Assembly: GCF_003994335.1 (NCBI RefSeq)
Contig: NZ_PNQZ01000013.1
Span: 310,001-374,000 of the forward strand
Direction of reading: 5' to 3'
From: Asaia sp. W19
GTDB lineage: Bacteria > Pseudomonadota > Alphaproteobacteria > Acetobacterales > Acetobacteraceae
Length of the DNA stretch: 64,000 nucleotides
Shown here piece by piece: positions 8,788 to 62,809 of the stretch. The position numbers and the translations under genes were made by a program. The notes below the pieces were generated by a model. It did not search any database. It was not told the DNA's origin and was given only the letters and a program-made list of their open reading frames with translations. Each line of letters starts with the position of its first letter. Position 1 is the stretch's first letter.

Positions 8788-11289
8788 ATGACGAGCTCCC
8801 AGGGAAACAGCCCGTTTTTGGGCTATTGCGACGGTATTCATAAAGAAATACTGATCGGCTGGGCAGTCAACCGTCTGGATCCCTATCAACCGGTGCGCCT
8901 GCACGTCCTGATAGACGGCCAGGAAATCGCCCAGATCCTCGCGGACCAGTCCCGATCAGACGTTCAGACCGCACTGAAGACCCCCCATGATCGCCTCGGA
9001 TTCAGCTTCACCATTCCGGTTCGCTTTATGGATGGCGTGGCGCATGAACTGTCGATACGCCTGCCGGACCGGACGATCCTGCCGATTGCCGAGCAGAACG
9101 GAGAAAACGCCCGCACGTCCCAAAGCTTCAAAATAGATGCGCGACCGGAATATACGAGCTGTGTCGACGGGGTCAAACAGGGCGCTCTGAAAGGCTGGGT
9201 TCTCCAGAAGATGCCGGGGGAGAGCGAATGGCGAGGCGATTGCATTGTCTCCGTGACCGCCAATGGCGTTCTGGTGGCACAGGTACGGGCCGATCGCTAT
9301 CGCGGCGATGTAGCAGCGGCTGTGGGCTGCAACCCCAATTGCGGTTTCGACATTCCCATCCCGCAGCGCTTCAGAGGGTCTTCTCCGCGCAGCTTCTCGG
9401 TCAAGATCCTGCCCGAGAGCGAGGAGTTGATGGGCAGCCCCTTCACCACCTCGATTGCTGATGACGCGCTTGAAACACGCCTGCTCGATATCGCCGAGAC
9501 CATCGACAAGCTGCATCGTGAACTGACAAAGCTGCGCACCGAAATACGCAATGCGATCCCGCGCGCCGGGTATAATCTCGGCAATTACGATCGCTGGGCC
9601 CTGCTCTATTACACGGCCCTGCGCGAACGCACCGCGCTACTGCGCGTGAAGGCCCCCCTGGGGACGGAGCCGCTCGTTAGTATCCTGTGCCCGACCTACA
9701 AGCCTCTCAAGGCTGATTACGTGACGGCCATCGAGTCCGTACTGCGTCAGACCTGGCACAACTGGGAGCTGATTCTGATCGATGACGGGTTGGTCTGCCC
9801 GCAGACCACTGCACTGATGCAGGAATATGCCGCCCGTGATGCACGCATCCGCGTTCTGCCTCTCGAGAAGAATCTGGGCATTTCAGGCGCTACCAATGCG
9901 GGTATGGACGCCGCCACAGGCCTGTACACGGTGTTTTTCGACCATGACGACATGCTCGTGGATGTCGCAATCGAGACGATGATGCGCAAGGCGCTGGAGA
10001 CAAACGCCCTCCTACTCTATTCGGACGAAGACAAGGTCGATCAGGCCAATAATTGGCAATCCCCCAACTTCAAGCCCGATTTCAACTATCGCTATCTGCT
10101 GGGCTGCAACTATGTCTGCCATCTCACCATGGTCGAAACCGAGACCATGCGAAAGATCGGCCCACTCCGGGCAGAGTATGATGGCGCTCAGGATCATGAT
10201 TTCATCCTGCGCGCCTGCGAGATCATTCCCCATGACCGGATCGGCCATGTTGCGGAACTGCTATACCACTGGCGCATGACTCCCAATTCGACGGCTGTGA
10301 CCGTCGGCAACAAGAACTATGCCATCGCGGCGGGGGTGAAAGCCGTTTCGGATCATCTGGATCGGTGTGGCTATGAGGCCGCTGTTTCCTCCATCAATGG
10401 GCTCACCCTGTATCGCGTGGATTGGCGCCTCAGCGCTTCCCCGAAAGTGTCGATCATCATTCCGTTCAAGGACCAGATCGATATCACACAGCGCTGCATC
10501 GAAACCCTTCTCGAACGCACCGCCTATGACAATTATGAGATCGTGCTGATCGATAACTGGTCGGTCACGCCGGAGGCCCATGCTTTCATGGAAAGGTTCG
10601 GCGCACACGAGAAACTGCGCTTTCTGACCATCGAGGAGCCGTTCAATTACTCGCGGCTCAACAATCTGGCCGCTCATGGCTGCTCCGCCGATTTCCTGCT
10701 TTTTCTCAACAATGATGTCTTCGTGGAAGAGAAAAACTGGCTGCGGCTGATGGTCAACGAGGCCCTCGCCGATCCGCAGGTCGGCGCGGTCGGCGCGCGG
10801 CTGCTCTACCCCAACCAGACCATTCAGCATGCGAGCGTGGTCGTGGGACCCGCCGGTGTCGGTGCCCACGCCCATCGCGGATGCGGTCCCGAGGATTACG
10901 GCTATATCGGGCGGATCCTGCTCAGCCATGAAGTGACCGCCGTCACCGCAGCCTGCATGCTCGTGCGTCGGGAGGTGTTCGAGTCAGTCGGTGGCTTCGA
11001 CGAGATCGAGCTCAAGATCGCCTATAACGATGTCGATCTCTGTCTCCGGATCAGGGATGCAGGGCACAGGATCATCTATTGCGCCGAGGCCGTGGCCTGG
11101 CATCACGAAAGCCTGACACGCGGCTCTGACGATGTGCCCGAACATGAGGCACGGTTCTTCCAGGAAGGCCAGATCATGCAAAAACGCTGGGCGGGCCATC
11201 CGCTTTTCGAGCGCGATCCGGCCTATCCTCGTTTTTTCACTGTCGATCTCCAGCCCTTCTTCGATCTTGTCGACCCCACCCGCAGCTGA
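8788..11289 (+). CDS. Bifunctional glycosyltransferase with two GT2 domains and a duplicated N-terminal domain
   Basis: An 833-residue protein from the ATG at 8788. The frame is open far upstream, but that part is antisense to the neighbouring gene. Residues about 10-110 and 120-225 are two copies of one domain: both carry a DG..K...L/I.GW core and end with AD-x-x-R-x-DV (LADQSRSDV, RADRYRGDV). A short coiled coil (about 228-256, KLHRELTKLRTEIR) leads into GT2 domain 1 (about 296-520, VSILCPTYK, metal-binding DHDD) and GT2 domain 2 (about 550-790, VSIIIPFKDQ, LNNDVF, NDVDLCLR). Proteins of this shape build or modify surface polysaccharide, adding two sugars in turn. No membrane helix is seen. 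The substrate is unknown. Confidence 0.9.
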   Translation: MTSSQGNSPFLGYCDGIHKEILIGWAVNRLDPYQPVRLHVLIDGQEIAQILADQSRSDVQTALKTPHDRLGFSFTIPVRFMDGVAHELSIRLPDRTILPIAEQNGENARTSQSFKIDARPEYTSCVDGVKQGALKGWVLQKMPGESEWRGDCIVSVTANGVLVAQVRADRYRGDVAAAVGCNPNCGFDIPIPQRFRGSSPRSFSVKILPESEELMGSPFTTSIADDALETRLLDIAETIDKLHRELTKLRTEIRNAIPRAGYNLGNYDRWALLYYTALRERTALLRVKAPLGTEPLVSILCPTYKPLKADYVTAIESVLRQTWHNWELILIDDGLVCPQTTALMQEYAARDARIRVLPLEKNLGISGATNAGMDAATGLYTVFFDHDDMLVDVAIETMMRKALETNALLLYSDEDKVDQANNWQSPNFKPDFNYRYLLGCNYVCHLTMVETETMRKIGPLRAEYDGAQDHDFILRACEIIPHDRIGHVAELLYHWRMTPNSTAVTVGNKNYAIAAGVKAVSDHLDRCGYEAAVSSINGLTLYRVDWRLSASPKVSIIIPFKDQIDITQRCIETLLERTAYDNYEIVLIDNWSVTPEAHAFMERFGAHEKLRFLTIEEPFNYSRLNNLAAHGCSADFLLFLNNDVFVEEKNWLRLMVNEALADPQVGAVGARLLYPNQTIQHASVVVGPAGVGAHAHRGCGPEDYGYIGRILLSHEVTAVTAACMLVRREVFESVGGFDEIELKIAYNDVDLCLRIRDAGHRIIYCAEAVAWHHESLTRGSDDVPEHEARFFQEGQIMQKRWAGHPLFERDPAYPRFFTVDLQPFFDLVDPTRS

Positions 11290-14216: not shown

Positions 14217-15647
14217 ATGAGTATTGTCACGATTGTCGGAACGTCTGGTACCGCGATTCACGTCACCGTTGACGGTGGACGTGCACAGGGCTTGGCTGAG
14301 CTCTACGCGCAGCAGATGGCCGATGCGTTTCAAAAGAACAAACTCGCCTCTGTGCGTCTTGCCCAGGGAGACAGCTCGGTGACTGGCACCGACAGTGTCA
14401 CTCTGCAGGGCATGATCGCGTCGACCGGCGATTATGCTCCGCATGGCGATTACACATTCATCGGGGTGGGCAACTGGGCCGACAGCACAGCCTATCGCGC
14501 GGGCGAGACAGCAGATGGACGCGTCACGATCGAGGGCGCTGGACTCACCTCCACGGGTATCGTGACGATCCTCGGCGGAAATACCGATGGAATCACGTTC
14601 AACGCCGGAAGTTCGAATGGAAGTTTTCTGGGTGTCAGTGGCGATAACTATTTCAACGGTGCAAGCCAGTCAGCAAACTGGACGATCGTAACCGCTGCGG
14701 GCAATGACACCATCCTGGCGACGAACGGCACAAATGACATCGATGCCGGCACGGGTGAAAACCTGATCATGCTGCAGCGCGGTGTGAACAGGGTTGTCTC
14801 TGAGGGAAGCGATACCATCCGCGGGATCAGCGGTGGCCAGGATTCAGTCACATTGCTGGGCGGGAACTCCTTTGTCACGCTCAAGGAAAACGCCTATGTC
14901 GCCGATCAGGGGAGTGTGGCCAGCACCATCACACTGGGCGACAATAGCAGCGTCGTCGGAGGATCGGGCTCGATTGTCTTCTTCACTGGTGCCAAGGGAA
15001 CCTTGACCGGTGCAAGCAATGATACGGTCTCGGCTCTGGGCGATCTGCGCGTCGATCAAGGGAGTGGGCAGACACTGAGTGTCACGGGCGCGCTCTCCTT
15101 CATCGCCGGGACGGGGAGCACCCAGGTCCAGGCCAGTCAGGCCACGCTATGGGGCGCGGATCATCTGTCATTGTCACTCGATGTCACCGGAACGGCATTG
15201 TGGACGGGCAATCAGAGCGCCTCGAGCACGAATGAACTCGTCGACGCCTCCTCATCGACCGGACGCCTCGAAGCCTGGAGCGGTGCTGGCAACCAGACCC
15301 TCATCGGGGGCCAGGGAGGTGATCATTTCGTATTCGGAACATCTTTCGGCGATAATAGAGGGGCGACCAACGTGACCGTCACCGGTGGCAGCGGCGCGGC
15401 AAACACATTTGGCGTGCTGTCCGGTCATACAGCGGGTGATGTGACCATCACCGATTTCTCGGCGGCCGCGGGCAATACGTTCTTCATGTATAACTATCAG
15501 CCTGGCAACGCCCAGAAGGAGATCAACGCCTTGCTCGGTACGGCGACGGTATCCGGAGGTAACACCTCCATCATGCTCGATAATGACATGAAAGTGACTT
15601 TCCTTGGTGTCACAGACCTCAAGGCATCTGACTTCTCGATCAGTTGA
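14217..15647 (+). CDS. Large RTX-like beta-repeat surface or secreted protein
   Basis: A 476-residue protein rich in Gly, Ser, Thr, Asn and Asp, and poor in Lys and Cys. Beta-helix-like repeats run through most of it (AGNDTILATNGTNDIDAG, GSDTIRGISGGQDSVTLLGG), and one clear RTX nonapeptide-like stretch is GGQGGDHFVF near residue 365. The C-terminus ITDFSAAAGN..., MKVTFLGVTDLKASDFSIS looks like the end of type I secretion substrates. There is no Sec signal peptide (MSIVTIVGTSGT). The family is not characterised; I infer an adhesin or matrix protein exported by a type I system, perhaps the one encoded at 58.5-62.2 kb. It has its own long promoter region and stands alone. Confidence 0.8.
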   Translation: MSIVTIVGTSGTAIHVTVDGGRAQGLAELYAQQMADAFQKNKLASVRLAQGDSSVTGTDSVTLQGMIASTGDYAPHGDYTFIGVGNWADSTAYRAGETADGRVTIEGAGLTSTGIVTILGGNTDGITFNAGSSNGSFLGVSGDNYFNGASQSANWTIVTAAGNDTILATNGTNDIDAGTGENLIMLQRGVNRVVSEGSDTIRGISGGQDSVTLLGGNSFVTLKENAYVADQGSVASTITLGDNSSVVGGSGSIVFFTGAKGTLTGASNDTVSALGDLRVDQGSGQTLSVTGALSFIAGTGSTQVQASQATLWGADHLSLSLDVTGTALWTGNQSASSTNELVDASSSTGRLEAWSGAGNQTLIGGQGGDHFVFGTSFGDNRGATNVTVTGGSGAANTFGVLSGHTAGDVTITDFSAAAGNTFFMYNYQPGNAQKEINALLGTATVSGGNTSIMLDNDMKVTFLGVTDLKASDFSIS

Positions 15648-51333: not shown

Positions 51334-52557
51334 CTAGCCTACAATCGACGCGATCAATCTGTCATAATTGGCGAGATAATGATCGAGGGACAGGGCATTC
51401 TCCGCGAATTGACGCGCGTTTTTGCGAAGCCTGCGCGCAAGCCTGCGGTCCTCAAGTATCTCAAGAATGGCGCGCGCAATGGCGTCAGGCTCCAGGAAAG
51501 GGGCCAGAAGCCCGGTCTGCCGATCACTGATGAATTCCTCGACCGAGGCTGTCTCGCTACCGATCAGCGCACAGCCTGTCGCCATGGCCTCACGCAACGA
51601 CCAGGAAGCGACGAACGGGTAGGTCAGATAGACATGCGCGTCGGATCGCTTGAGGGCGGTACGGAAGGTATCGTAATCGACTTTCCCGAGGAAATGCACG
51701 CGATCCAGATCGATCTGGGACGCCACTTCCTTGAGGAACAGATCGCGCCAGCTCCCCACCTCGGCCGGAGGGGGAGCGCCATAGCTCGTGCCATCGCCCC
51801 CGATCAGAACGATACGCGCATCCGGTCTTTCCTTCAGGACGGCAGGGAGGGCGCGCAAGAAGCTGTGGATGCCGCGATAAGGCTCCAGATTACGTGCCAC
51901 GAAGGTGATCAGCTTGTCCTTCGGGCTGATCACGTGCGGACCGATCACCACCTCTCCTTTGAAGATGGCAGGATCTGGCGCACAAAGATCGAGATTGACC
52001 CCTTCACGGAGCAGGGTGATCCGCTCCTGTGCCCAGTCGGGGTAGGTACTGCGCTGGAACAGTGTCGGGGTCTGGCCATACTGATTCAGATTCAGCGCCA
52101 GAAGATTGATGGCATTCTTGACCCGAACGGTGGGGAACAGATCGGTTCTCGGCGGGAATTCCGGATCGAAATCGACGTCATTTCTGTCGGTATGATAGAA
52201 GAACTCAAAGTATCCCAGGATAGGTGTCGAGGGATAAACATCGACGATATTGAGCAGTTCACCCCATCCGTGGTGGCCAATGATGATATCGGGGGTATAG
52301 CCAAGACTTTTAAGCGTTGCCGCCGCGCGGGCCACCGCCTCTGCGCGGATGAGACCGAGTTCCAATTCACGGAGCGAAGGATGGGTGTGCGCGGAAACCT
52401 GCCGATCCTGACGATAGAGGACACGGCGCACACCTGGAAGATGGCCTTCATTGGCCTCCGAGATGAAAACGATCTCATGGCCGCCCTGTTCATGCAAATG
52501 TCGGACCAGATGGAGGAACTGACCCGGGAAATTCTGATGCACGAACAGGAAACGCAC
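51334..52557 (-). CDS. Glycosyltransferase family 4 protein
   Basis: A 407-residue GT-B enzyme starting with the first strand MRFLFVHQNFPGQFLHLVRHL. The C-terminal domain has the donor-binding blocks ARNLEPYRGIHSFLRAL, VHFLGKVDYDTF, TYPFVASWSLREAMATGCALIGSETASVEEF, typical of GT4. The start is GTG at 52557; no ATG lies in frame before a stop. Last gene of the long minus-strand cluster that starts with the type I secretion genes. Sugar donor unknown. Confidence 0.88.
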   Translation of the reverse strand: MRFLFVHQNFPGQFLHLVRHLHEQGGHEIVFISEANEGHLPGVRRVLYRQDRQVSAHTHPSLRELELGLIRAEAVARAAATLKSLGYTPDIIIGHHGWGELLNIVDVYPSTPILGYFEFFYHTDRNDVDFDPEFPPRTDLFPTVRVKNAINLLALNLNQYGQTPTLFQRSTYPDWAQERITLLREGVNLDLCAPDPAIFKGEVVIGPHVISPKDKLITFVARNLEPYRGIHSFLRALPAVLKERPDARIVLIGGDGTSYGAPPPAEVGSWRDLFLKEVASQIDLDRVHFLGKVDYDTFRTALKRSDAHVYLTYPFVASWSLREAMATGCALIGSETASVEEFISDRQTGLLAPFLEPDAIARAILEILEDRRLARRLRKNARQFAENALSLDHYLANYDRLIASIVG

Positions 52558-52662
52558 GATCGGGAGACTTTCAGATAGTCGTTCATCATGAAGCTGGGGT
52601 CACCGGATTCGGTCATCCGATGCTCCTGCGTCGAAACGATCCTACCCGATTTCGGGTGACCC

Positions 52663-52719
52663 TTCACAGGGACGGACCGCCACGGCCTCAACATGAGAGG
52701 AGAGGCCAGCCCCTGTGAA
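52663..52719 (-). ncRNA. Long two-stem RNA structure inside the glycan cluster
   Basis: Outer arms TTCACAGGG and CCCTGTGAA pair perfectly, and within them GGCCTC pairs with GAGGCC. It lies in the 225-base gap between the ChW-like gene and the GT4 gene, next to the terminator hairpin at 52724-52750. It may set the ratio of the two genes or stabilise the message. This is inference from pairing only. Confidence 0.4.
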
Positions 52720-52723
52720 GGAT

Positions 52724-52750
52724 CCCGGCCCTTTCAGCCCTTGGGCCGGG
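52724..52750 (-). terminator. Hairpin after the ChW-like gene
   Basis: CCCGGCCC and GGGCCGGG form a perfect eight-base stem with an 11-base loop, 32 bases past the stop. No T tract. Confidence 0.5.
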
Positions 52751-52782
52751 GCGCGTTGCGTCCCTTGCCCGATCGGCTTGGA

Positions 52783-53685
52783 TCAGCCCGCCTGTCCCTT
52801 GCGACGGCTCGGGCTCTTCTTGCCCGCCTTGGCAACGGCTGATGCGCTATTCTTGGGGACAATCGCGATATGGAAGGCTTCCAGCGGCGCAAGAGACTCT
52901 GCCTCAAGCGCCTCACCCCCGGCCACCGGACCGAGACGGGTGCCGTCGGTAAAGCTCGCACTGACGGCGAGATCGAATTTGTCCTCTGCCCCGTTCTTCA
53001 GACGAACGCAAAGCCCGAGAATAGGCAGGGCCATGCCGCGCGATCCGCAATACTGACCGGCCTCCGCCCAGGGAGAGAGCCAGCCCTTGCCCAGCACGGC
53101 CTGATACTCGATGTCTTCCGGCGCGATCAGGCTCTGCGGAGCGATCCCGAATCCCTCGATCCAGTTATGGCTGCCGGGTTCACCCATCCACTCGCCGATC
53201 TGGGCAAGCACGTCACCGCGACGCTGTATATGGGCTGCGAGCTCCGGTTTGGCATCGCTCTGCGGGGCTGCAGCAGCTTCTTCCTGAGCGCCCGAGGGAG
53301 CGGCCGCCGCGGTGGAAGCCGAGGGCTCATTAGAAAGTCGCGCGACCTGAATGCCCGGTGCGGGCATCGTACTGTCAGGTGCCTGATAGGTCGTGACAAG
53401 AATCTGGGCCGGACCACGCGCGATGCGAACAAGAGCCGCACCAGCGCCAGCGCCGCGCGTGCTGCTGATCAGCCCGTCATCCTCGAAAGTCTTGATCGTG
53501 ACTACACCTGCCGGCATGTTCGGTGCCTGCGTCACACTGACAGCAGGATAACCGTTAACGCAATGCGCCGCCTGGTCGGGGGGCAGGAACACGCAGAATA
53601 ATCCTGCGTCGAAAGTCATCAAGGATGCATGAACCTTGAGTTGGACAACCTGTTCCTTTCCGGAGGAAGTCACTGCATTAGACAT
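52783..53685 (-). CDS. Hypothetical protein with ChW-like C-terminal domain
   Basis: A 300-residue protein. The first part (QVVQLKVHASLMTFDAGLFCVFLPPDQ) resembles no family I know; a flexible Ala/Ser/Pro linker follows (about 115-150); the last part has DIEYQAVLGKGW...PWAEAGQYCGSRGMALPILG, close to one copy of the clostridial hydrophobic W (ChW) repeat, which binds surface glycan. The C-terminus is basic (SPSRRKGQAG). No signal peptide is seen, so export, if any, would be by another route, such as the adjacent type I system. It lies between glycosyltransferase genes. Confidence 0.72.
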   Translation of the reverse strand: MSNAVTSSGKEQVVQLKVHASLMTFDAGLFCVFLPPDQAAHCVNGYPAVSVTQAPNMPAGVVTIKTFEDDGLISSTRGAGAGAALVRIARGPAQILVTTYQAPDSTMPAPGIQVARLSNEPSASTAAAAPSGAQEEAAAAPQSDAKPELAAHIQRRGDVLAQIGEWMGEPGSHNWIEGFGIAPQSLIAPEDIEYQAVLGKGWLSPWAEAGQYCGSRGMALPILGLCVRLKNGAEDKFDLAVSASFTDGTRLGPVAGGEALEAESLAPLEAFHIAIVPKNSASAVAKAGKKSPSRRKGQAG

Positions 53686-53808
53686 CTGTATTTGTCCATC
53701 ATTGATATAGGCTTGCTCAAGAGATGCTGGCCGGAATAAGCTTTTTACATCTCATACGATCGTTAAACTTGTATAACAGCTGTGGCCTTACGGTAAAAGT
53801 GCCGAGGC
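53686..53808. promoter_or_regulatory. AT-rich gap upstream of the ChW-like gene
   Basis: A 123-base stretch much richer in A and T than its neighbours, with TATACA and TATATC elements readable on the minus strand. It may hold an internal promoter of the cluster. Confidence 0.4.
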
Positions 53809-56733
53809 TCAATGTGATAAGTGTAGCAGCAGATTACTAAGTAACGGCACGGGCATTCCAAGCGGCACGACGGCGCCCTGTCCGGACTTCTGAATACGTT
53901 CGGATTGCGCGCCAATATCGAAGCTCACGGCACGCAGCCCCGCATTCCAGATGTTCGACAGGGCAAAACACCATGTCTCGGGCCAGAGAGAGGGGATCAG
54001 ACCCAGACTGCAATCGAATTCGCGGATCAGATCCGTCGCCTCATCCTCCTTGTATTCCCCTGTGATCAGCACGTGCCCCGTTGCCATCAGACGATCATCG
54101 TCAATTGTGTAGCCGACGATGACATAATCCAGGGGCAGGTCGCGTTTGGCCGCCTCTTCCGCCAGTTGAAGCACGATTTCGTATCCTTTCTCACGACCGA
54201 TTGCGCCGGGAATACAGATACGTTTGCGCGCCCGGGCCGTGCCCGCTGAAACACGCGGATCAAGCGGGGCCAAAGGCGCCTCGAAGGGTTGCAGACTGAT
54301 TTCGAGCCCGGGGAAATGGCGGGCCATCCGCCTTTTGAGATCATTGGACCCTGCGATGACCTGACGTGCCTCACGCAGGGCGCGATCGGACTGGGCCACG
54401 AGTTCCGCCACGGACAGATGCTCCTCCACAAGAGCCCCCTGCTGCGCCACGCAGGAGACACAGCCTGCAAGGGCAGGCTCACCGCAATAATGTCCATTAG
54501 GGCCAATCAGACAGATACGCGGACAAAACCAGACATAATCATGCAGAATGATGTCCCACTTCATGCCCAGAGCGGAAGCGAGATCATGCATGGCCGGCGC
54601 ATGGCCGATCAGGTGATGCCACTCGAGACGCTCGGCCTTCATGCGCTTCAGCACTGCGACGAAATTGAGCCATTCATGCGGAAGGTCGAAAATGAGATTG
54701 GCCGTGTCTCCCCCACAATCCTCGATCCGGCATCCTCTTTCATGGGGGCGCAGGATCAGAACCTGACTTCCCTCCGCCTGAGCCTTGCGTAGACGATGCT
54801 GGACCACACGCTCCACACCGCCCCCCGAATCATGCGTGACCATGATAAGACACGAGCGCGCCTTGGCGCGGCGGATGATCATGCGGACAAGCCCCGCATT
54901 ACGGCGAACGGCCCCCAGGGGATCGGATTTGACGAATGCGGCGATCGTATCCTCATAGCCTGGGTGGCGGCAATTCAGTAGGCGCAGATTACGCTCCAGC
55001 AGCAGGCTGCGCGTCCGGCCAAATGAGACAGATCCTATATGGAGGACGAAGAGATCACTCGCCGCGATATGGCGCCACCCCAGCGCACTGGCACGACAGC
55101 AGAAATCATTCTCCTCTCCGTAGCCTTGCGCAAAGAGCGCGACATCGAGCAGACCCGTCTGCACGAGGCAATCCCCTCTTATCCCCATGCAAAATCCGAT
55201 ACCTGTAGGCAGATCGACCGGTTTCTGCCGGGGCAACGAGGCAAAGATCCTGTCGAGCGCCCTCGCCTGGGCCAGATCCGGCGTCGGATTCGGTTTTTCG
55301 ACCGAGGGGTAGGACAAAATAGTCGCATCATTCGAGAAGGGCGTGACGGTTCCGATCTTTTCTCCCACATCGAACCAGGCGCGCAGGCGCGCCAATCCCC
55401 CCTTCGGGAGGAGCGCATCACTGTTGAGGAGAACAACGTCACGCCCGCGCGCCTGCTCCAGACCGGCATTGGCGCTCGCCGTGAAGCCCAGATTTTCCTC
55501 ATGCCTGACGAGAGTAATCCGCCCGCCCTGTTCGAATTGGTCGAGCATGGCGCTAAGCGCCTCTTCGGGTGAGGCGTCATCTATGACGAGGCATTCCACA
55601 TCGTCGCCCGCCTCCCTGAGCATCGCCTCGATGCAGCGTCGCGTGAGCGCAGCATCCCGGTAGGCGGGTATGATGACAAGACATCCTGACGCGCGGTCCG
55701 GCAGTGGCCGTGCGCCCTCTGGCCTGCGCGCTAAAGGCTCTGCAGTACAGGACGATTTACCCGGCGGAGGATCGAGCATCGCAATCACGGCGGGGCCGAG
55801 CGGGCTACCCGTCAGCGCCGTGCCATATCGGTCCCTGAGGGTGATGATCCCCTCCGGCAGGGCGTCAAGCGGCAGCCCGAAATGACGGGGGCGTGCCAGA
55901 GGCTTGTCGAGATTGACCCCCTGCTCGATCTGGGACGCCGTCAGATCGATCATCTCCCCGGCGACCTCGATCACGGCATGAGGCGTGAAATCCGGATCTG
56001 CCGGATACCAGATCCATCCTTCGAGATGGTGATTCCTGACGGTGACAAATCCCTGAACCTGACGAATGGCGGGCAAGGCGATCGGGCTGCCATAGAGCGG
56101 CCTTCCGTCACTTTCGACCACCAATCGGCGCGCCTTGCGCCATGTTTCCGGCAGGGAAAAAGGCAGGGCGACATCCTGGGCAACCAGCCCATCATCAAGC
56201 CGGATTGTTACCGGGCCCGGACAGACGCCGAATACCTCCCCGGCATTGCTGGTCGCGCACCAGCCGTCAAACCCGGCATGGCGGGCGAAGACGTCAGCCC
56301 AGCTGAATACCTCGGGCGAGGGCGCGTAGTGCCCCAGCATCCTGCCAAACAACGCGACGGCTTCATCCCATTGACCGAGATGAGACAAGGCGATCGCCCG
56401 CCCGACCAGTGCCTTGCGCATGATGAATCGCTCAGCGATCCATGCCATCCGTTTCGCGGCGTCCTGCCAACGGCCCGCCGCAAGAAGCGCCATCGCATAG
56501 GCAAAGATGACATTGGGCTCGTGACGCGCCATGCGCGCGGCCCGGCCGAGCCAGTAGACGGCCTCGTCCTTCCTGCCCTTTTGACCAGCCTCGGTCCCGC
56601 GGCGATAGGAATCCTGTGCCTTGGCGTCATGCCATCTTTGCCAGTTCTCCCGATCTTTGGCCGTGACGACATGTCCATAACCGGAGGCTACGGGGCGCGG
56701 ACGCCGCGAGGGGGTATTGCGCCTCTCAGGCAC
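53809..56733 (-). CDS. TPR/GT2/GT4-like fusion glycosyltransferase
   Basis: A roughly 974-residue protein. The frame is open to 56802, but the first part overlaps the Sel1-repeat gene; I use GTG at 56733, which overlaps its stop. Residues about 25-150 are TPR-like helices (YRRGTEAGQKGRKDEAVYWLG). About 230-330 has a HLEGWIWYPADPDFTP domain related to the duplicated domain of the protein at 8788. About 350-600 is GT2 (CLVIIPAYRDAALTRRC, LVIDDASPEE, LLNSDALLP). From about 625 a GT-B/GT4-like region starts (VTHDSGGGVERVV, then RICIPGAIGREKGYEIVLQL). It should add two kinds of sugar. No membrane segment. Confidence 0.88.
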   Translation of the reverse strand: MPERRNTPSRRPRPVASGYGHVVTAKDRENWQRWHDAKAQDSYRRGTEAGQKGRKDEAVYWLGRAARMARHEPNVIFAYAMALLAAGRWQDAAKRMAWIAERFIMRKALVGRAIALSHLGQWDEAVALFGRMLGHYAPSPEVFSWADVFARHAGFDGWCATSNAGEVFGVCPGPVTIRLDDGLVAQDVALPFSLPETWRKARRLVVESDGRPLYGSPIALPAIRQVQGFVTVRNHHLEGWIWYPADPDFTPHAVIEVAGEMIDLTASQIEQGVNLDKPLARPRHFGLPLDALPEGIITLRDRYGTALTGSPLGPAVIAMLDPPPGKSSCTAEPLARRPEGARPLPDRASGCLVIIPAYRDAALTRRCIEAMLREAGDDVECLVIDDASPEEALSAMLDQFEQGGRITLVRHEENLGFTASANAGLEQARGRDVVLLNSDALLPKGGLARLRAWFDVGEKIGTVTPFSNDATILSYPSVEKPNPTPDLAQARALDRIFASLPRQKPVDLPTGIGFCMGIRGDCLVQTGLLDVALFAQGYGEENDFCCRASALGWRHIAASDLFVLHIGSVSFGRTRSLLLERNLRLLNCRHPGYEDTIAAFVKSDPLGAVRRNAGLVRMIIRRAKARSCLIMVTHDSGGGVERVVQHRLRKAQAEGSQVLILRPHERGCRIEDCGGDTANLIFDLPHEWLNFVAVLKRMKAERLEWHHLIGHAPAMHDLASALGMKWDIILHDYVWFCPRICLIGPNGHYCGEPALAGCVSCVAQQGALVEEHLSVAELVAQSDRALREARQVIAGSNDLKRRMARHFPGLEISLQPFEAPLAPLDPRVSAGTARARKRICIPGAIGREKGYEIVLQLAEEAAKRDLPLDYVIVGYTIDDDRLMATGHVLITGEYKEDEATDLIREFDCSLGLIPSLWPETWCFALSNIWNAGLRAVSFDIGAQSERIQKSGQGAVVPLGMPVPLLSNLLLHLSH

Positions 56734-58492
56734 GCGAACCCATGCGTCGATCGAGCTTGGCAAGCTCCTCCTGGGCTTCGGCCACGCCTTGAGAATGGGC
56801 ACGCTCCAGCCACAAGCGCGCCTCGATCGGATTGACCTCTCCGGCCAGGCCGCGTTTCAGATACCGCCCGAGCATGAGTTGTCCAAGGCCATGACCGCAT
56901 TCGGCTGCGCGCCTGAACCAGAGCTGCGCCTCGCGCCGATCGGCCGGCACTTCATGCCCGCCTCCCAGCATGGCCCCCACAGAGAACATGGCCTCGCTGC
57001 TGCCAAGCGACGCGGCGTCCTTGTAAAGACCGAGCGCATAGGTGTGATTGCGCGCCCCTACCGCATGGCCAGAGACATGCAACTGGGCCAGAAGCGTCAT
57101 GGCCTCGACCATCCGCGCCTGCGCCGCCTTTTCGAGCCATTGATGAGCCTGCGCCATATCAGGCGGAACACCGCGCCCCTCAAGATACATGCGGCCCAGC
57201 CAGTACTGCGCATTGATCACGCCATCGGCGGCGCGCTGCATCCAGAACAGCGCACGCGTGTCATCGCGCATGGTCCCCACGCCTTCGGCATAGCAGACCC
57301 CCAGATTGAAGGCGCCGACGAGATCGCCCTCCTCAGCCGCCTTCAGGAAGCGCGCCTGCATGGCCTGCCTGTCTTCTTCCGTGCCGATGCCGGTCAGAGC
57401 CAGATTACCCAGATCCGCGTCGGCCACGCGATCCCCGCACTCTGCCGAGATACGGAACCACCTGGCTGCTTCGTCGGGATTACGTGCGACCCCTGTTCCT
57501 GTAAGGTGCAAAAGTGCCAAGCCACGGGCGGCGGCCCCATGCCCCAGCTCCGCCGCGATCTGGTACCAGGTCGCCGCCTCGAGATAATTCGGCGCCATAT
57601 CATCGCCGCGGATATGCAGGTCGCCCAGCAAGGCTGCTGCTTCGGCATCGCCCGACATGGCTGCGCGGCGCAGCCAGGTTTCAGCCCGGTCGAGGCGACG
57701 CTTGACGCCCTTGCCCTGCAATAGATAGAGCGCAATACGGGTCTGCGCAGCGGTAACACCACGCTCGGCAGCTTTCTCGAAGTAATGGGCGGCCCTGGCG
57801 AAATCCTGATCCTGGCCGACACCCTGCTCATTGATCCAGGCAAGATAATAGTAAGCCGTCGCGAGCCCCGCCTCGGCAGCGTGGCTCAGCTCGATCGTAC
57901 CCTGCTGGCGATCCGCCTCGGAACGGGGCCAGGTATGCATGGCAATACCCAGGCCCAGATGCCCCTGGGCAGAGCCCGCCGCAGCGGATTTCTCGTACCA
58001 GCCTCGCGCCTGATCCAGATCGCGCAGATCATCCGGGCCGTTCGTCAGCACATAACCGAAAAGCGCCTGAGCGTCGGGGCTTCCTGCCTCCGCTGCAAGA
58101 CGGCCCCATCGGGCTGCATTTTGCAGATCGGGAATGCGCCTCGCTTCGGTCGCATCCGTTTTCTCGGTCAGGATTGCCCCGCGATTCTCATCGAAACCTT
58201 CAGGGAAACCCATGAGATAGAGCGTGGCCAGAATGAGCTGAGCCTGAACATGCCCGGCCTCGGCGGCCTTTCTCGTCCAGCGCGTGCCCTCCTCCAGGCT
58301 TGGGGGCGTGCCCCATCCCTCGAGATAGGCCTTGCCCGTGCGATACTGAGCCTCGACGCTCCCTTGCTGGGCCAATTGTCCCAGCTGGGCAAAGCCGCGA
58401 ACCGCATCCTCGCCGGACTCGATCTGACTGATCGCGTTCTTGAGTCTGGCCTCACGCGAAACGATGCCTGCCAGACGTGTCTTCAGTGCCAA
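56726..58492 (-). CDS. Sel1-repeat (SLR) scaffold protein
   Basis: A 588-residue protein of about 13-14 Sel1-like repeats of some 36 residues, each with an A-A-x-x-G...A..LG..Y..G pattern (AAEAGHVQAQLILATLYLMG, AAERGVTAAQTRIALYLLQG, AAELGHGAAARGLALLHLTG). Such solenoids hold other proteins together. The short N-terminus (MALKTRLAGIVSREARLKN) has no signal peptide, so it is probably cytoplasmic, perhaps docking the glycosyltransferase or the secretion substrate. It lies between the HlyD gene and the fusion glycosyltransferase. Confidence 0.92.
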   Translation of the reverse strand: MALKTRLAGIVSREARLKNAISQIESGEDAVRGFAQLGQLAQQGSVEAQYRTGKAYLEGWGTPPSLEEGTRWTRKAAEAGHVQAQLILATLYLMGFPEGFDENRGAILTEKTDATEARRIPDLQNAARWGRLAAEAGSPDAQALFGYVLTNGPDDLRDLDQARGWYEKSAAAGSAQGHLGLGIAMHTWPRSEADRQQGTIELSHAAEAGLATAYYYLAWINEQGVGQDQDFARAAHYFEKAAERGVTAAQTRIALYLLQGKGVKRRLDRAETWLRRAAMSGDAEAAALLGDLHIRGDDMAPNYLEAATWYQIAAELGHGAAARGLALLHLTGTGVARNPDEAARWFRISAECGDRVADADLGNLALTGIGTEEDRQAMQARFLKAAEEGDLVGAFNLGVCYAEGVGTMRDDTRALFWMQRAADGVINAQYWLGRMYLEGRGVPPDMAQAHQWLEKAAQARMVEAMTLLAQLHVSGHAVGARNHTYALGLYKDAASLGSSEAMFSVGAMLGGGHEVPADRREAQLWFRRAAECGHGLGQLMLGRYLKRGLAGEVNPIEARLWLERAHSQGVAEAQEELAKLDRRMGSRA

Positions 58493-58523
58493 ACCGCTCT
58501 CCCTCCCGCTCGTCCTTACGGGG

Positions 58524-59978
58524 TCATGACGGCTCCCGCAGGCCAGTAGTTGCCGCCGGTATCGCCTTGCTGAAGAAATACTGCATCATGGTGCGCTTGC
58601 CGACCTGGATATCAGCCGTGACGGGCATGCCCGGCGTCGGATGGAAGAAGCTCGGGACACCATGCAGCGTATAGCGATCGATCCGCAGACGCACGCGATA
58701 GAAGCCCGATTGCGACGGATCCTGATCCCCTGCCGGGGGCTCACCCGAAGCTGCACTTTTCATATCGCCTGCCGTGAAGGCATCGGCGCTGATCAGACGC
58801 ACCGTGCCATCCGCCCCGCCATATTGCGTGTAGGGGAAGGTCTGAAACTTCAACAGCGCATGATCGCCCAGCTTGACAAAGCCTGCATCATTGCCGCGAA
58901 GCACCGCCTCCATCTCAAGCGCAGCTCCCGTTGGCACGATAGCCATCAACATCTGACCCGGAGATATGACCGAACCTACCGAAAGCTTGGCAATATTCAG
59001 GACCACGCCATCATCCGGAGATCTTAGTTCGACAAGCTTGTTACGCAACTCGGCTTTCTTGTATTCGCCAATCGCTTCATCGGCGTGATGCTGTACCTCG
59101 GCGAGCTGGGTATAGATCTGCCCTTTCCAGTTCTGCACATAGGCATCGCGTTCCGCCTGGGTCGCTGCCAGTTTGGCCTTTGTGGCCGAAGCCGTCTGCT
59201 GGGCTTCGATCTGCGCGCGTTCGGCATCCATGAGTTCGCTCTGAGCCGCGAGCGTGGAAAGTTTGCTCCCCACCTGATCTGCCTGAAGGCGCCGGCGCAT
59301 CTGAAGCACTTCATTCGCCACGCGTCCACGGCTCTGATGCATCGCAGCGCTGGCGAGTGAACCCGTCATCTGGCTCTGAAGAGCCGCTATTTCCTGATCG
59401 TATTGATTGATCTTTGCTGTGTACTCGGCGCGACGGCGCTCGAATGACGCAGCCTCACGCACCGAATAGCTGTTGTTCAGATCAGGCGTGTAAGCCTTGC
59501 CCTCGGCCTCGGCATGCAGACGATCGATTGTTGCGACATAGGAATCACGCTGTGCCTTGAGGTTGACGATATCCGCCTTCGAGAGTGTGGGGTCGAGATG
59601 AGCAAGAACCTGACCCTTCTTCACATATTGCCCCAGCTCAACATCGATCGAACGAATGATCGAGATTTCCAGCGGCTGGATGACCAGATCGCGATCGACA
59701 GCAACCAGACGTCCGGGCGTGCTCACCACCTTATTGAGCGGGAACACGGAGGCTGCGGTCAGACTTGCAACCATCAGCGCGCCGACGATCCAGATGATAT
59801 AGCGCGCCGTAGCCGTGGGGGGCAGGTTGACCAGCGCCGCACTGGGTGAGTGAAATTCCAGGAGTGCTAGGGGCATGCCCTGCTGCGCAAAGGGATCATC
59901 GGCCGGGCGCGGGATATGCTGCTCGACTTCCTTGTGATCTTCGGTTCCGTTTTCCGGAACGATATCCTTGTTGCTCAT
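58524..59978 (-). CDS. HlyD-family type I secretion adaptor
   Basis: A 484-residue inner-membrane periplasmic adaptor. After an acidic cytoplasmic tail (1-57) comes one membrane helix (IIWIVGALMVASLTAASVFPL), then the lipoyl-like region (SIIRSIDVELGQYVKKGQVLAHLDPTL), a long coiled coil (about 125-320) and the beta-barrel (LRSPDDGVVLNIAKLSVGSVISPGQMLMAIVP). It links the ABC transporter encoded just upstream to an outer-membrane TolC-type channel, which is not in the window. It follows the ABC gene by three bases. Confidence 0.94.
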   Translation of the reverse strand: MSNKDIVPENGTEDHKEVEQHIPRPADDPFAQQGMPLALLEFHSPSAALVNLPPTATARYIIWIVGALMVASLTAASVFPLNKVVSTPGRLVAVDRDLVIQPLEISIIRSIDVELGQYVKKGQVLAHLDPTLSKADIVNLKAQRDSYVATIDRLHAEAEGKAYTPDLNNSYSVREAASFERRRAEYTAKINQYDQEIAALQSQMTGSLASAAMHQSRGRVANEVLQMRRRLQADQVGSKLSTLAAQSELMDAERAQIEAQQTASATKAKLAATQAERDAYVQNWKGQIYTQLAEVQHHADEAIGEYKKAELRNKLVELRSPDDGVVLNIAKLSVGSVISPGQMLMAIVPTGAALEMEAVLRGNDAGFVKLGDHALLKFQTFPYTQYGGADGTVRLISADAFTAGDMKSAASGEPPAGDQDPSQSGFYRVRLRIDRYTLHGVPSFFHPTPGMPVTADIQVGKRTMMQYFFSKAIPAATTGLREPS

Positions 59979-59981
59979 GGC

Positions 59982-62216
59982 TTATTCCTCATCCATCAGC
60001 ATGGGATCATCTTGGGGACCGGCATTGGCGCTGCGCGCACTGTGTTCATGCCGGTTCTGTTGCATCCAGAGCATGCGATAGATCTCACAGCGTTCCAGGA
60101 GCACCGCATGGGGGGCCACATCCACCACCTTGCCCTTGTCCATGACGCAAATCTGATGGCAGTCCACCAGCGAGGAGAGACGGTGCGAGACGATCACCAT
60201 CGTGCGACCCTTGCCGATACGCTGCAGGTTGGCATTGACCAGAGCCTCGCTCTCGGGATCGAGTGCCGAGGTCGCTTCGTCGAGGATCATGAGCTTGGGA
60301 TCGCTGATCACCGCACGGGCAATCGCGAGGCGCTGTCTCTGACCGCCCGAGATATTCGTCGAGCCTTCTTCGATCGCGGTATCATAACCCGCAGGCATGC
60401 GATCGATGAACTCCTCGGCACCCGCCAGACGCGCTGCGCGGATCACGTCATCCATCGTATAGCCAGGCCGCCCGGCCGTGATGTTGTCACGCACGGTACC
60501 GCGGAAGAGGAAGTTGTCCTGAAGCACGACACCGAAGGAGCGACGCAGATGGCTCAGATTGATCTCGCGCAGTTCGACGCCATCGAGGCGCAGATAACCG
60601 GTATAATTCCGGCTAACCCCCTGCAACAGGCGCGTCACGGTAGATTTGCCAGAGCCTGAGCGTCCGACGAGGCCCAGCATCGTGCCAGCCGGAATTTCGA
60701 AATTGACGTCGTTAAGCGCCTTGATGGTGGACCCGGGATAACAGAAATCTACTTGCGTGAAGGAGAGCGCCCCCTTGATCGGGGGGCGTAGCCCCGAAGT
60801 CAGGGCCTTGGTCTCGGTGGGCTGGTTCAGCACCAGCCCTGCCTCACCCAGCGAGGTCATGACTTCGTTCACGTCTTCCAGAATCTTGGCCAAGCCAACC
60901 AGAGGCGCCGCGACGCGACCCCCGAGCATCATGAAGGCCATGAGAGCGCCGGGTTGGATGGAGCTCGATCCTGTCAGGATCAGATAAGCCCCAACCAGAA
61001 TGATACCGCGATTGATGAACATCTCGAGCGGCATGACAAGGGTGGAGGGCCAGCTCTGCATACGACCGGCAGCGAGCTTCCAGCGGATTACATCGGCCGT
61101 TGTCTCGTCCCATTTCTCCCGTCGGGTGGGTTCCAGCGCCAGCGTCTTGACGGTGCGGATACCGGCCACTGTCTCATACAGCACCGAACTGCGCTCCATC
61201 TCGGCGCGGATGAGGCGGTTATACACGCGCGTCATGGGCGGCAGGAAGATCACGATGATCAGCCCGATCAACCCGGCACAGGCCACAGTCAGCCAGGCGA
61301 GCGTGGCGCTCATATAGAAGAGCAGCGGCAGGATCACGAAAAGCGTGAACATATCCAGGAAGGTCGACATGAGCTTGCCGGTCAGGAAGTCACGTACCTT
61401 GTAGATCGCCATATAGCGACCGAGAATGCGCCCGGTCTGCTCACGCTCGTAGAATTCGAGGGGTAGAGCCAGAAGTCTGCTGAAGGCGTGCAGCGAGATA
61501 CGCGTATCGACGCGGGTGGTCAGCACAAGCATGAGCTCGCGCCGCCCATAGGTCAGCAGGACCTCGTAGAAACTCAGGATCAGTACGATGGCGGTGATCG
61601 AGACCAGCGTCGACATCGAATGGTAATTCACCACGCGATCGATAACCTGCATGACGATCAGCGCTGGGAAAATCTGCAGGATAGCCAGAACCATCGAGGC
61701 GAAGAGCACATCGCGCAGCGAGTTCTTCTCGCGCATGACGATGCGTACGAACCACATCAAATCGAAAGGCGCATCGGCCTCGGAAAGGTCACGACGGCGT
61801 TTGATGAGCAGGATATCGCCTGTCCAGACCTGAGAGAGACGCAGCTCATCCACGGCCACAGGTACGCTGCCATCATCCCCAAGGGGGTCACGCAGCCAGA
61901 CGATGTTGCGCTCCGGATCGGCACGCACCATCAAGGCCGCCGAGCCATCGCGGAACATCAGCACGATCGGCGGCGTATTCTGCATACGCACAAGAAAGCG
62001 CCATTTAATGCGCATTCCCTTCGCCACAGCCCCATTTTCATTGAGCCAGCGTGCGAGAGAAGCAGGGGAAGGCGACGATTCACCAGGTTCCGCAGCGAAG
62101 TCACGGATATCCAGATCGAGCCCGTGATATTTGGCGGCCGCCATGGCGGCGCGCAGCCGGATATAGACTGGATCCTGGGTCTCGCTGTCCGCAGCGACGC
62201 CATCACGATGCTTCAC
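59982..62216 (-). CDS. Type I secretion ABC transporter with degenerate C39-like domain
   Basis: A 744-residue exporter. Residues about 1-140 look like a C39 peptidase-like domain (LARWLNENG, MRIKWRFLVRMQNTPPIVLMFRDGSAALMV) but lack the catalytic Cys, so it should bind substrate without cutting, as in HlyB. Membrane helices span about 155-440 (VLFASMVLAILQIFPALIVMQVIDRVV). The ATPase has GRSGSGKST near 515, the signature ISGGQRQR and LMILDEATSALDPESEALV. First gene of the cluster that continues with HlyD, Sel1, glycosyltransferases and a ChW-like gene. The substrate is not encoded next to it. Confidence 0.93.
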   Translation of the reverse strand: MKHRDGVAADSETQDPVYIRLRAAMAAAKYHGLDLDIRDFAAEPGESSPSPASLARWLNENGAVAKGMRIKWRFLVRMQNTPPIVLMFRDGSAALMVRADPERNIVWLRDPLGDDGSVPVAVDELRLSQVWTGDILLIKRRRDLSEADAPFDLMWFVRIVMREKNSLRDVLFASMVLAILQIFPALIVMQVIDRVVNYHSMSTLVSITAIVLILSFYEVLLTYGRRELMLVLTTRVDTRISLHAFSRLLALPLEFYEREQTGRILGRYMAIYKVRDFLTGKLMSTFLDMFTLFVILPLLFYMSATLAWLTVACAGLIGLIIVIFLPPMTRVYNRLIRAEMERSSVLYETVAGIRTVKTLALEPTRREKWDETTADVIRWKLAAGRMQSWPSTLVMPLEMFINRGIILVGAYLILTGSSSIQPGALMAFMMLGGRVAAPLVGLAKILEDVNEVMTSLGEAGLVLNQPTETKALTSGLRPPIKGALSFTQVDFCYPGSTIKALNDVNFEIPAGTMLGLVGRSGSGKSTVTRLLQGVSRNYTGYLRLDGVELREINLSHLRRSFGVVLQDNFLFRGTVRDNITAGRPGYTMDDVIRAARLAGAEEFIDRMPAGYDTAIEEGSTNISGGQRQRLAIARAVISDPKLMILDEATSALDPESEALVNANLQRIGKGRTMVIVSHRLSSLVDCHQICVMDKGKVVDVAPHAVLLERCEIYRMLWMQQNRHEHSARSANAGPQDDPMLMDEE

Positions 62217-62416: not shown

Positions 62417-62809
62417 TTAAAATTCGTATCGCGCCATGATCATTCCATCACTCTTGAGCTTGGCTCTGACTTCATTTTCCGCGCCTCCGTTACAGAGACA
62501 GATTACAAAGCTGAAGTCGGGACAGGCACCGCGCACATGATCAAGGAAGAGTTGATGCAGAGCCTTGATCAGTGGATCCCGCCCGCCGCAGCATCCGCAA
62601 AAACGTCCATGAGCCCCATACCCGGGCATCATCGGGGCGACTGACCTCCTCAGAGCCCAGTCCGGCTCGTCCGGCGGGAAGATGCCCTCAGCCGTCATGC
62701 CTCCCCCATAAGAGAGAAGGGCCCCCTCGCGACGACGCGCCTGCCACGGCATAGCGAGCGCCAGAGCGTCAGTGATCAGAATGAGCGGGATACGACCGCC
62801 TGAAGACAT
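62417..62809 (-). CDS. CobW-like protein without a P-loop
   Basis: A 130-residue protein beginning IPLILITDALALAMPWQ, with FCGCCGGRDPLIKALHQLFLDHV in the middle, which resembles the C-x-C-C metal-binding segment of CobW/P47K GTPases, but with no Walker A (GxxGxGKT) motif. It may be a metal-binding remnant or a specialised stub. It is divergent from metH across about 155 bases, which is notable as MetH needs cobalamin. The ATG-type start is at 62809. An AT-rich segment that includes a GAATTTAAAATTC palindrome lies at its stop. Confidence 0.65.
   Translation of the reverse strand: MSSGGRIPLILITDALALAMPWQARRREGALLSYGGGMTAEGIFPPDEPDWALRRSVAPMMPGYGAHGRFCGCCGGRDPLIKALHQLFLDHVRGACPDFSFVICLCNGGAENEVRAKLKSDGMIMARYEF

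What the first reader, a model, noticed from the sequence alone, without database searches (positions are those of the whole stretch)
51334..62216. Type I secretion genes joined to Sel1, fusion glycosyltransferase, ChW-like and GT4 genes
Six genes on one strand link an exporter with protein-glycan machinery: T1SS ABC, HlyD, Sel1 scaffold, TPR-GT2-GT4 fusion, ChW-like protein, GT4. This suggests a system that glycosylates a substrate before or during type I export, or builds a matrix held by exported proteins. I know of no named system with exactly this gene set. The substrate is not encoded next to it.
Basis: inference. Interest (0 to 1): 0.65.

Follow-up and report, generated by a model that had tools for sequence, protein, structure and literature searches.

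The report
RTX protein glycosylation-and-export gene cluster
Acetic acid bacteria share a conserved six-gene cluster that most likely adds sugars to small repeat-rich surface proteins inside the cell and then exports them in one step, a pairing of machinery for which I found no description.

Summary
Six genes lie on the minus strand, 62216 to 51334: type I ABC exporter, HlyD adaptor, Sel1-repeat protein, TPR-GT2-GT4 fusion (FGT), ChW-like protein, PF12000 GT4. All six keep this order in 26 of 36 scored loci, and the Sel1 orthologue is in 168 of 249 Acetobacteraceae genomes. Of 73 family genomes with that protein family, 71 have the Sel1 orthologue. In nine genomes of the genus the cluster holds the only type I adaptor over cut-off. 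RTX genes elsewhere often sit beside large glycosyltransferases (28 of 47 loci; held-out loci 17 of 30 against 1 of 20 control stretches). Outside the family, one genome has an RTX gene upstream of an FGT::ChW fusion and GT4, and two have a ChW homologue beside RTX genes. I infer that the cluster glycosylates RTX-type surface proteins in the cytosol and exports them. No sugar or acceptor is shown, and 97 of 168 cluster genomes gave no hit of the RTX family.

The parts
59982..62216 (-). Type I secretion ABC exporter, 744 aa: N-terminal region in the place of HlyB's C39-like domain, membrane domain, ATPase
   Evidence: PF00664 2.1e-33, PF00005 7.5e-32; residues 49-720 align with HlyB 38-705; no Cys in its first 150 residues
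58524..59978 (-). HlyD-type periplasmic adaptor, 484 aa
   Evidence: TIGR01843 328.4 bits, cut-off 208.65; only match over cut-off reported in this genome
56726..58492 (-). Sel1-repeat protein, 588 aa, no membrane segment by hydropathy; putative cytosolic scaffold
   Evidence: PF08238 2.8e-76; hydropathy; orthologue in 168 of 249 family genomes
53809..56802 (-). FGT: TPR - beta domains - GT-A (GT2) - GT-B (GT4) fusion, 997 aa; true start probably further downstream
   Evidence: PF00535 3.4e-20; AlphaFold pLDDT 86.2; residues 371-627 Z 19.7 to GalNAc-T2 6nqt, 646-997 Z 20.4 to BshA 6n1x
52783..53685 (-). ChW-like protein, 300 aa, two beta domains in the model; putative substrate adaptor
   Evidence: PF07538 24.7 bits, cut-off 22; AlphaFold pLDDT 81.3; fused to FGT in L198 and L199; next to RTX genes in L207 and L208
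51334..52557 (-). GT4 glycosyltransferase (PF12000 + Glycos_transf_1), 407 aa
   Evidence: PF12000 2e-56
14217..15647 (+). Candidate substrate: RTX-like repeat protein, 476 aa, no hydrophobic N-terminal segment, no Cys, conserved C-terminus
   Evidence: homologues in L106 and L090 match PF00353; family co-occurs with the cluster
8788..11289 (+). Tandem GT2-GT2 protein with an N-terminal extension, 833 aa; possible partner glycosyltransferase of the RTX protein
   Evidence: PF00535 1.4e-38, two stretches; homologues directly beside RTX genes in L106, L165, L176 and directly behind GT4 in L035
7699..8643 (-). GT2-like glycosyltransferase (PF13704), 314 aa, beside the tandem GT2 gene
   Evidence: PF13704 3.2e-12; same neighbours in L100

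Best explanation
A dedicated system that modifies and exports RTX-type surface proteins. The RTX protein stays unfolded in the cytosol. Soluble, nucleotide-sugar-dependent glycosyltransferases (FGT, GT4, and often a tandem glycosyltransferase encoded beside the RTX gene) add sugars to it. Sel1 and ChW proteins act as scaffold or adaptor that bring enzymes and substrate to the exporter. The ABC-HlyD pair, with a TolC-like channel encoded elsewhere, then moves the protein in one step to the outside, where it folds and coats the cell or binds surfaces. Shown: genes, families, conserved order, co-occurrence, neighbourhoods, fusion. Inferred: glycosylation of the RTX protein, order of steps, roles of Sel1 and ChW, final surface role.
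For: (1) Six-gene order kept in 26 of 36 scored loci (25 distinct places). (2) 71 of 73 family genomes with the RTX-like family have the Sel1 orthologue, against 97 of 176 without it; relatedness inflates the p-value of 9e-13. The two exceptions still hold remains of the cluster: G124 has exporter (read in two frames), adaptor and part of Sel1 on a 5 kb contig; in G157 exporter and RTX genes are all broken. (3) In each of the nine genomes of the genus the cluster has the only TIGR01843 adaptor over cut-off (24 of 27-42 first-look candidates per genome were scored), so a type I substrate there has one evident route. (4) The exporter aligns with HlyB nearly end to end; 29 of 32 aligned copies have no Cys in the first 150 residues. 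Non-cleaving C39-like domains go especially with RTX cargos (PMC8277102, passages). (5) RTX genes sit within 3 kb of a glycosyltransferase at 28 of 47 loci, 22 of 32 genera; at loci not used to train the models 17 of 30, against 1 of 20 control stretches (p = 2e-4); mostly 10-210 bp apart on the same strand; Pfam agrees for those checked. (6) An RTX gene is followed after about 20 bp by a second FGT in L132. (7) Outside the family: RTX upstream of an FGT::ChW fusion, methyltransferase and GT4 in L198; the same fusion and GT4 in L199; ChW directly before an RTX gene and then GT4 in L207; RTX-ChW-RTX with GT4 further on in L208. (8) FGT, GT4 and the window's two GT2-type enzymes show no membrane segment by hydropathy (FGT's best stretch is just under the threshold), and no flippase, polymerase or priming enzyme is among the six.
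Against: No sugar or acceptor site is shown. 97 of 168 cluster-bearing genomes gave no RTX-like hit at 1e-20, so other substrates exist or the family diverges beyond the profile. 19 of 47 RTX loci have no such glycosyltransferase within 3 kb (some are on short contigs, such as L105 and L168). L040 and L041 lack ChW and GT4 beside FGT. In G526, which holds L198, no full-length relative of the exporter was found, and its Sel1 gene is on the other strand. The window's RTX protein itself has no Pfam match. One exporter copy (L059) has a Cys near the place of the C39 catalytic Cys. Co-decay in G157 is weak evidence: 9 of 9 genes of the system are broken there, but so are 14 of 44 others (my count from the rows).
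Confidence: 0.67

Rival explanations
1. Matrix model: the glycosyltransferases build a surface polysaccharide, and the exporter sends out RTX proteins that bind and hold that glycan; the protein itself is not glycosylated.
For: GT2 and GT4 families are common in polysaccharide synthesis (recalled); the GT-A part of FGT also resembles chondroitin and heparosan synthases; an OprB carbohydrate-porin gene lies next door.
Against: None of the six proteins matches a polymerase, flippase or priming transferase; the enzymes tested look soluble; RTX genes pair with different large glycosyltransferases at different loci, which fits substrate-specific modification better than one shared polymer.
Confidence: 0.2
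2. Neighbourhood without function: a type I exporter and glycosyltransferases sit together by conserved chromosomal order only.
For: In many genera the cluster lies near the same neighbours, genes that look like methionine synthase and inorganic pyrophosphatase (these two names are recalled from the sequence, not scanned).
Against: FGT, ChW and GT4 relatives lie beside RTX genes outside the family, and FGT and ChW are fused in two genomes; a second FGT lies directly behind an RTX gene in L132.
Confidence: 0.05
3. The exporter serves mainly other substrates (for example Hint-domain repeat proteins, 27 matches in this genome), and the RTX link is secondary.
For: 97 of 168 cluster genomes gave no hit of the RTX-like family at 1e-20; Hint_2 proteins are numerous in Asaia; one RTX protein beside a ChW homologue carries a Hint domain (L208).
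Against: Hint_2 proteins also abound in family genomes without a Sel1 match, such as G035 with 22; RTX-like proteins track the cluster.
Confidence: 0.15

Closest known systems
HlyBD-TolC type I secretion of RTX proteins (with HlyC acylation of HlyA)
   Same: ABC exporter that aligns with HlyB nearly end to end, HlyD adaptor, RTX-like cargo without N-terminal signal; in the HlyA case too the cargo is modified in the cytosol before export (recalled).
   Different: Accessory genes are glycosyltransferases plus Sel1 and ChW proteins; cargo genes are scattered paralogues; the exporter scores below the HlyB and LssB cut-offs.
Accessory Sec (SecA2/SecY2) glycosylation and export of serine-rich repeat adhesins in Gram-positive bacteria (recalled)
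   Same: Works alike, if my reading is right: cytosolic glycosyltransferases modify a repeat-rich surface protein whose dedicated exporter is encoded with them.
   Different: Type I exporter instead of Sec; none of the six proteins matches SecA, SecY or Asp models; Gram-negative host.
Glycosylated RTX proteins of cyanobacteria, SwmA and oscillin (PMC3034196, passages)
   Same: RTX surface proteins described as glycosylated.
   Different: The passages that I saw name no glycosylation machinery; relation of those genes to this cluster not tested.
HMW1C and GT41 cytosolic protein glycosylation (recalled)
   Same: Cytosolic protein glycosylation; the GT41 enzyme OGT also carries TPRs.
   Different: No GT41 match in FGT; type I rather than two-partner secretion.

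Membership tests
Type I secretion system, HlyB/HlyD class | ABC exporter with membrane and nucleotide-binding domains | tested here: met
   PF00664 and PF00005 over cut-off; residues 49-720 align with HlyB 38-705
Type I secretion system, HlyB/HlyD class | HlyD-type adaptor | tested here: met
   TIGR01843 328.4 bits, cut-off 208.65
Type I secretion system, HlyB/HlyD class | C39-like domain without catalytic cysteine (RTX exporters of the HlyB type) | tested here: inconclusive
   no Cys in the first 150 residues in 29 of 32 rows, window included; one row has a Cys near the expected place; the region aligns with HlyB only within the whole protein, alone E 0.77
Type I secretion system, HlyB/HlyD class | TolC-type outer membrane channel | not tested
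   none of the six genes; no genome-wide search made
Type I secretion system, HlyB/HlyD class | RTX cargo with uncleaved C-terminal signal | tested here: inconclusive
   conserved C-terminus in A1 and PF00353 in several homologues; the window's copy has no PF00353 match; export not tested
TIGR01846 HlyB / TIGR03375 LssB subfamilies | score over curated cut-off | tested here: not met
   521.5 vs 725.55 and 459 vs 693.1 bits
Accessory Sec / serine-rich repeat adhesin glycosylation | SecA2, SecY2, Asp proteins in the locus | tested here: not met
   no such Pfam match among the six proteins; genome not searched for them
GT41 protein glycosyltransferases (OGT, HMW1C) | GT41 domain | tested here: not met
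   FGT matches GT2 and GT4 models, no GT41 model
Lipid-linked polysaccharide synthesis locus | flippase, polymerase or priming transferase in the locus | tested here: not met
   none among the six proteins
Protein glycosyltransferase activity of FGT | transfers sugar to protein | not testable with these tools
   fold of the GT-A part close to polypeptide GalNAc transferases, but also to polysaccharide synthases

The most novel reading that the evidence does not exclude
An undescribed, family-wide machine that couples cytosolic protein glycosylation to type I secretion: a shared core (ABC, HlyD, Sel1, FGT, ChW, GT4) plus, for many RTX surface proteins, a tandem glycosyltransferase of their own encoded beside them, so that one exporter delivers several differently glycosylated coat proteins.
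Probability: 0.5. Interest if true: 0.78.

Novelty: new variant of a known kind. Interest (0 to 1): 0.63.

Why it matters
Glycosylated RTX proteins have been described in cyanobacteria (passages of PMC3034196), but I found no described machinery that links glycosylation to type I secretion. A conserved gene set with candidate substrates and partner enzymes makes the question testable in culturable acetic acid bacteria, which adhere to insects, flowers and bottling plants (ecology recalled). It also bears on a proposal to use Asaia type I secretion for mosquito paratransgenesis (PMC12502724, abstract and passages).

Tried and rejected
Tried and of little use: NCBIfam gave no functional name over cut-off for FGT, Sel1, ChW or GT4. 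PHROGs gave one weak GtrB-like match for FGT; PADLOC gave weak matches for exporter and Sel1 only. Foldseek and VIA-align 2 gave no clear fold for the ChW protein (best E 0.017, best Z 6.2 over 94 residues, first domain only); its second, best conserved domain is barely tested. phmmer with the exporter's first 165 residues alone gave only weak matches, HlyB among them at E 0.77. Hint_2 proteins as the main substrate: not favoured. G157 co-decay: kept as weak evidence only (system 9 of 9 broken, others 14 of 44 by my count of the printed rows that do not touch an edge; ORF-based and rough; genome decay and sequencing error not separated).

Corrected on checking: an earlier count said that the exporter's N-terminal region lacks Cys in 32 of 32 copies; one search shows 29 of 32 (L044, L054 and L059 have one or two).

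Literature: ten searches showed no paper on this cluster; the library holds open-licence PMC papers only, and for only part of the matching papers was listed (20 of 47, 25 of 366, 15 of 25). Seen: PMC12502724 abstract, outline, passages and one section; PMC8277102 and PMC3034196 passages only; all others as search listings. The eight type I predictions in PMC12502724 are software predictions; I could not map them to the RTX family.

Rows dropped and choices: I left out L101-L104 (pieces of RTX genes in the window's own draft genome, at contig ends or broken). RTX neighbourhoods were fetched for part of the genomes with hits; several of the 30 held-out loci share a genus. The 20 control stretches were places that I picked in genomes that bear the cluster; any glycosyltransferase anywhere in them counted. 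At a looser threshold a second control stretch (L143) has a match. Models for one search were built from the window, cluster loci L029-L063 and RTX loci L088-L106. Alignment A2 used 22 and A3 24 rows; some rows at hand were left out (L031, L032 in both; L049 and L053 in A3). The loci for one search were those at hand, not a random sample. Genome searches score only part of their first-look candidates. Genes were called by a simple ORF script, so starts and gaps are approximate.
Full report
Pfam and NCBIfam support each label, with two cautions: the ChW label rests on one repeat just above cut-off, and the TPR and GT4 parts of the fusion protein are below cut-off by sequence but clear in the predicted structure.

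The gene order is conserved. Among 36 loci scored with models of the six proteins, 26 hold ABC-HlyD-Sel1-FGT-ChW-GT4 in this order on one strand. Named organisms among them are Asaia siamensis, lannensis, krungthepensis, bogorensis, astilbis and prunellae, Swaminathania salitolerans, Gluconobacter morbifer, Brytella acorum, Acetobacter orientalis and A. cibinongensis; others are unnamed family genomes. In L034 and L037 one or two genes of the set read in two pieces. L050 and L174 are one place, so 25 distinct places of 35. Six of the other loci end at a contig edge, two lack ChW and GT4 (L040, L041), and two are Sel1 relatives elsewhere. In a census of 249 Acetobacteraceae genomes the Sel1 orthologue was found in 168 (75 of 102 genera).

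The exporter has a membrane domain and an ATPase domain, and residues 49-720 align with HlyB 38-705 when the whole protein is compared. Its N-terminal region thus stands where HlyB has its C39-like domain, though alone it gives only a weak match. In 29 of 32 aligned copies this region has no cysteine; L044, L054 and L059 have one or two, and one in L059 is near the place where I expect the catalytic Cys of C39 peptidases (motif recalled). Non-cleaving C39-like domains are tied especially to export of RTX cargos (passages of PMC8277102). The adaptor is the only TIGR01843 match over cut-off in the window's genome and in each of the eight other genomes of the genus (24 of 27 to 42 first-look candidates per genome were scored; four of these genomes have a second match well below cut-off). 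So a type I cargo of these cells has one evident route.

A candidate cargo lies in the window at 14217-15647. It has no hydrophobic N-terminal segment, no cysteine, and is rich in Gly, Thr, Ser and Ala. Its family has a conserved N-terminus and a conserved C-terminus with the consensus KVTFLGVTDLKASxFxIS, which resembles type I cargo ends (recalled). The window's copy has no Pfam match, but homologues in L106 and L090 match the RTX calcium-binding repeat. The eight other genomes of the genus give three to five matches each, some of them pieces of one gene, and all nine have few RTX repeats in all (one to four PF00353 matches; I did not map these to the family). In the family census a profile of this protein (E 1e-20) finds 73 of 249 genomes; 71 of these have the Sel1 orthologue, against 97 of the 176 without it. 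The genomes are related, so the p-value of 9e-13 overstates the case. The two exceptions are informative: G124 (79% complete) has the exporter, read in two frames, the adaptor and part of Sel1 on a 5 kb contig; G157 has the exporter, adaptor, Sel1, FGT and GT4 all broken, no ChW match, and its RTX genes and one neighbouring glycosyltransferase broken too. By my count of the rows that is 9 of 9, against 14 of 44 other genes, so that genome is decaying generally and the point is weak.

The genes around RTX paralogues point to glycosylation. In 47 RTX loci, 28 have a glycosyltransferase of the families found here within 3 kb (22 of 32 genera). The commonest layout is RTX followed on the same strand, mostly after 10 to 210 bp, by a protein of about 900 aa that is GT4-GT4 where checked, often with a second large glycosyltransferase on the other side and an RgpF-like gene (Pfam check of L091 and of L117, L132 and L165; in L117 the second one is GT4-GT2). 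Models were built from the window, cluster loci L029-L063 and RTX loci L088-L106; at loci not used for training the count is 17 of 30, against 1 of 20 control stretches (Fisher p = 2e-4). At a looser threshold a second control stretch has a match. Several held-out loci share a genus. Other layouts are RTX followed by a GT2-GT2 protein (L106, L165, L176) or by a second FGT (L132, about 20 bp). The genome of L132 has three RTX loci, each with a different kind of tandem glycosyltransferase (L132, L164, L165), plus the six-gene cluster (L163). The window shows a looser version: the GT2-GT2 gene at 8788-11289 lies 2.9 kb from the RTX gene with another gene between, and a similar layout is seen in L100. 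19 of 47 loci have no such enzyme within 3 kb; some of these are on short contigs.

The strongest link comes from outside the family. The ChW profile matches 6 of 385 genomes of the class, two of them outside the family. In both of those ChW is fused to the end of FGT. In G526 (L198) an RTX gene with seven RTX-repeat stretches lies directly upstream, on the same strand, of the FGT::ChW fusion, which is followed by a methyltransferase and GT4; a cut Sel1 gene lies at the contig end on the other strand. In G496 the same fusion, a similar small ORF (not scanned) and GT4 are on one contig (L199) and ABC-HlyD-Sel1 on another (L206). In the phylum search ChW matches 7 of 398 genomes, two outside the family: in G877 (L207) ChW is followed within about 45 bp by an RTX gene with twelve repeat stretches and then GT4; in G900 (L208) ChW lies between two RTX genes, one with a Hint domain, with GT4 about 1.7 kb further on. 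So ChW and this GT4 keep company with RTX genes even where I saw no exporter beside them. Against this, in G526 no full-length relative of the exporter was found (150 of 190 candidates scored), so export there may use another system or the gene may lie in a gap.

Predicted structures: FGT (pLDDT 86.2) has a helical repeat (about 48-176), beta domains (about 180-345), a GT-A domain and a GT-B domain. The GT-A domain matches polypeptide GalNAc transferases best by Foldseek, with Z 19.7, rmsd 3.5 over 231 residues for 6nqt; polysaccharide synthases are within about one Z unit, so the acceptor type cannot be read from the fold. The GT-B domain matches BshA (Z 20.4, rmsd 4.0 over 280). Residues such as D409, D462, E563, E564, K872 and E942 are invariant in A3; that they are catalytic motifs is recalled. 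ChW is two beta domains with no clear relative.

Most likely mechanism, with the basis of each step. The RTX protein is kept unfolded in the cytosol (inferred from the exporter class). Soluble glycosyltransferases modify it there (inferred: no membrane segment by hydropathy in the window's enzymes, FGT being just under the threshold; one-step export leaves no later stage for cytosolic nucleotide-sugar enzymes). Sel1 and ChW bring substrate and enzymes to the exporter (inferred from conserved order, fusion and neighbourhood). ABC-HlyD with an unlocated TolC-like channel exports it (inferred and from the family). Outside, calcium folds it into a surface layer or adhesin (inferred from RTX biology). 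The main rival, a polysaccharide matrix bound by exported proteins, is not excluded.

Novelty. Type I secretion, RTX cargo and cytosolic protein glycosylation are each known. Glycosylated RTX proteins were described in cyanobacteria (SwmA, oscillin; passages of PMC3034196). I found no paper that describes this gene set or any glycosylation module coupled to type I secretion in ten searches of an open-licence library; subscription papers were not covered and three of the listings were partial. I rate it a new variant of a known kind.

Noticed in passing
own genome G000 and relatives: Hint_2-domain proteins are very numerous in Asaia and a close relative: 27 matches in G000, 9 to 22 in nine others (G001-G008, G016). 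They are not restricted to cluster-bearing genomes.
   Followed up: partly
L157-L160, L178-L180 (genome G157): A 1.97 Mb single-contig Acetobacteraceae genome in which many genes are broken compared with a sister genome, among them the exporter cluster and its RTX genes; genome decay or sequencing error was not separated.
   Followed up: partly
L166, L167 (genome G025): Two extra ABC-HlyD pairs of the same subfamily without the other four genes beside them.
   Followed up: no
window 62417-62809: A small ORF between the exporter and the methionine synthase-like gene has homologues (28-41% identity) at a similar place in many genera; no Pfam match.
   Followed up: no
L198 3780-4436, L199 3616-4221, L107 8292-9074: Methyltransferase genes (L198 and L107 by Pfam; L199 similar by eye) sit between FGT::ChW and GT4 or directly behind an RTX gene, which may point to methylated sugars.
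   Followed up: no
L206 5853-7613: A 586 aa protein with a CBM60 module and a beta-helix lies directly upstream of ABC-HlyD-Sel1; a possible further exported protein.
   Followed up: no
L208 7269-8330: An RTX protein with a Hint domain lies beside a ChW homologue, the only direct link that I saw between Hint proteins and this gene set.
   Followed up: no
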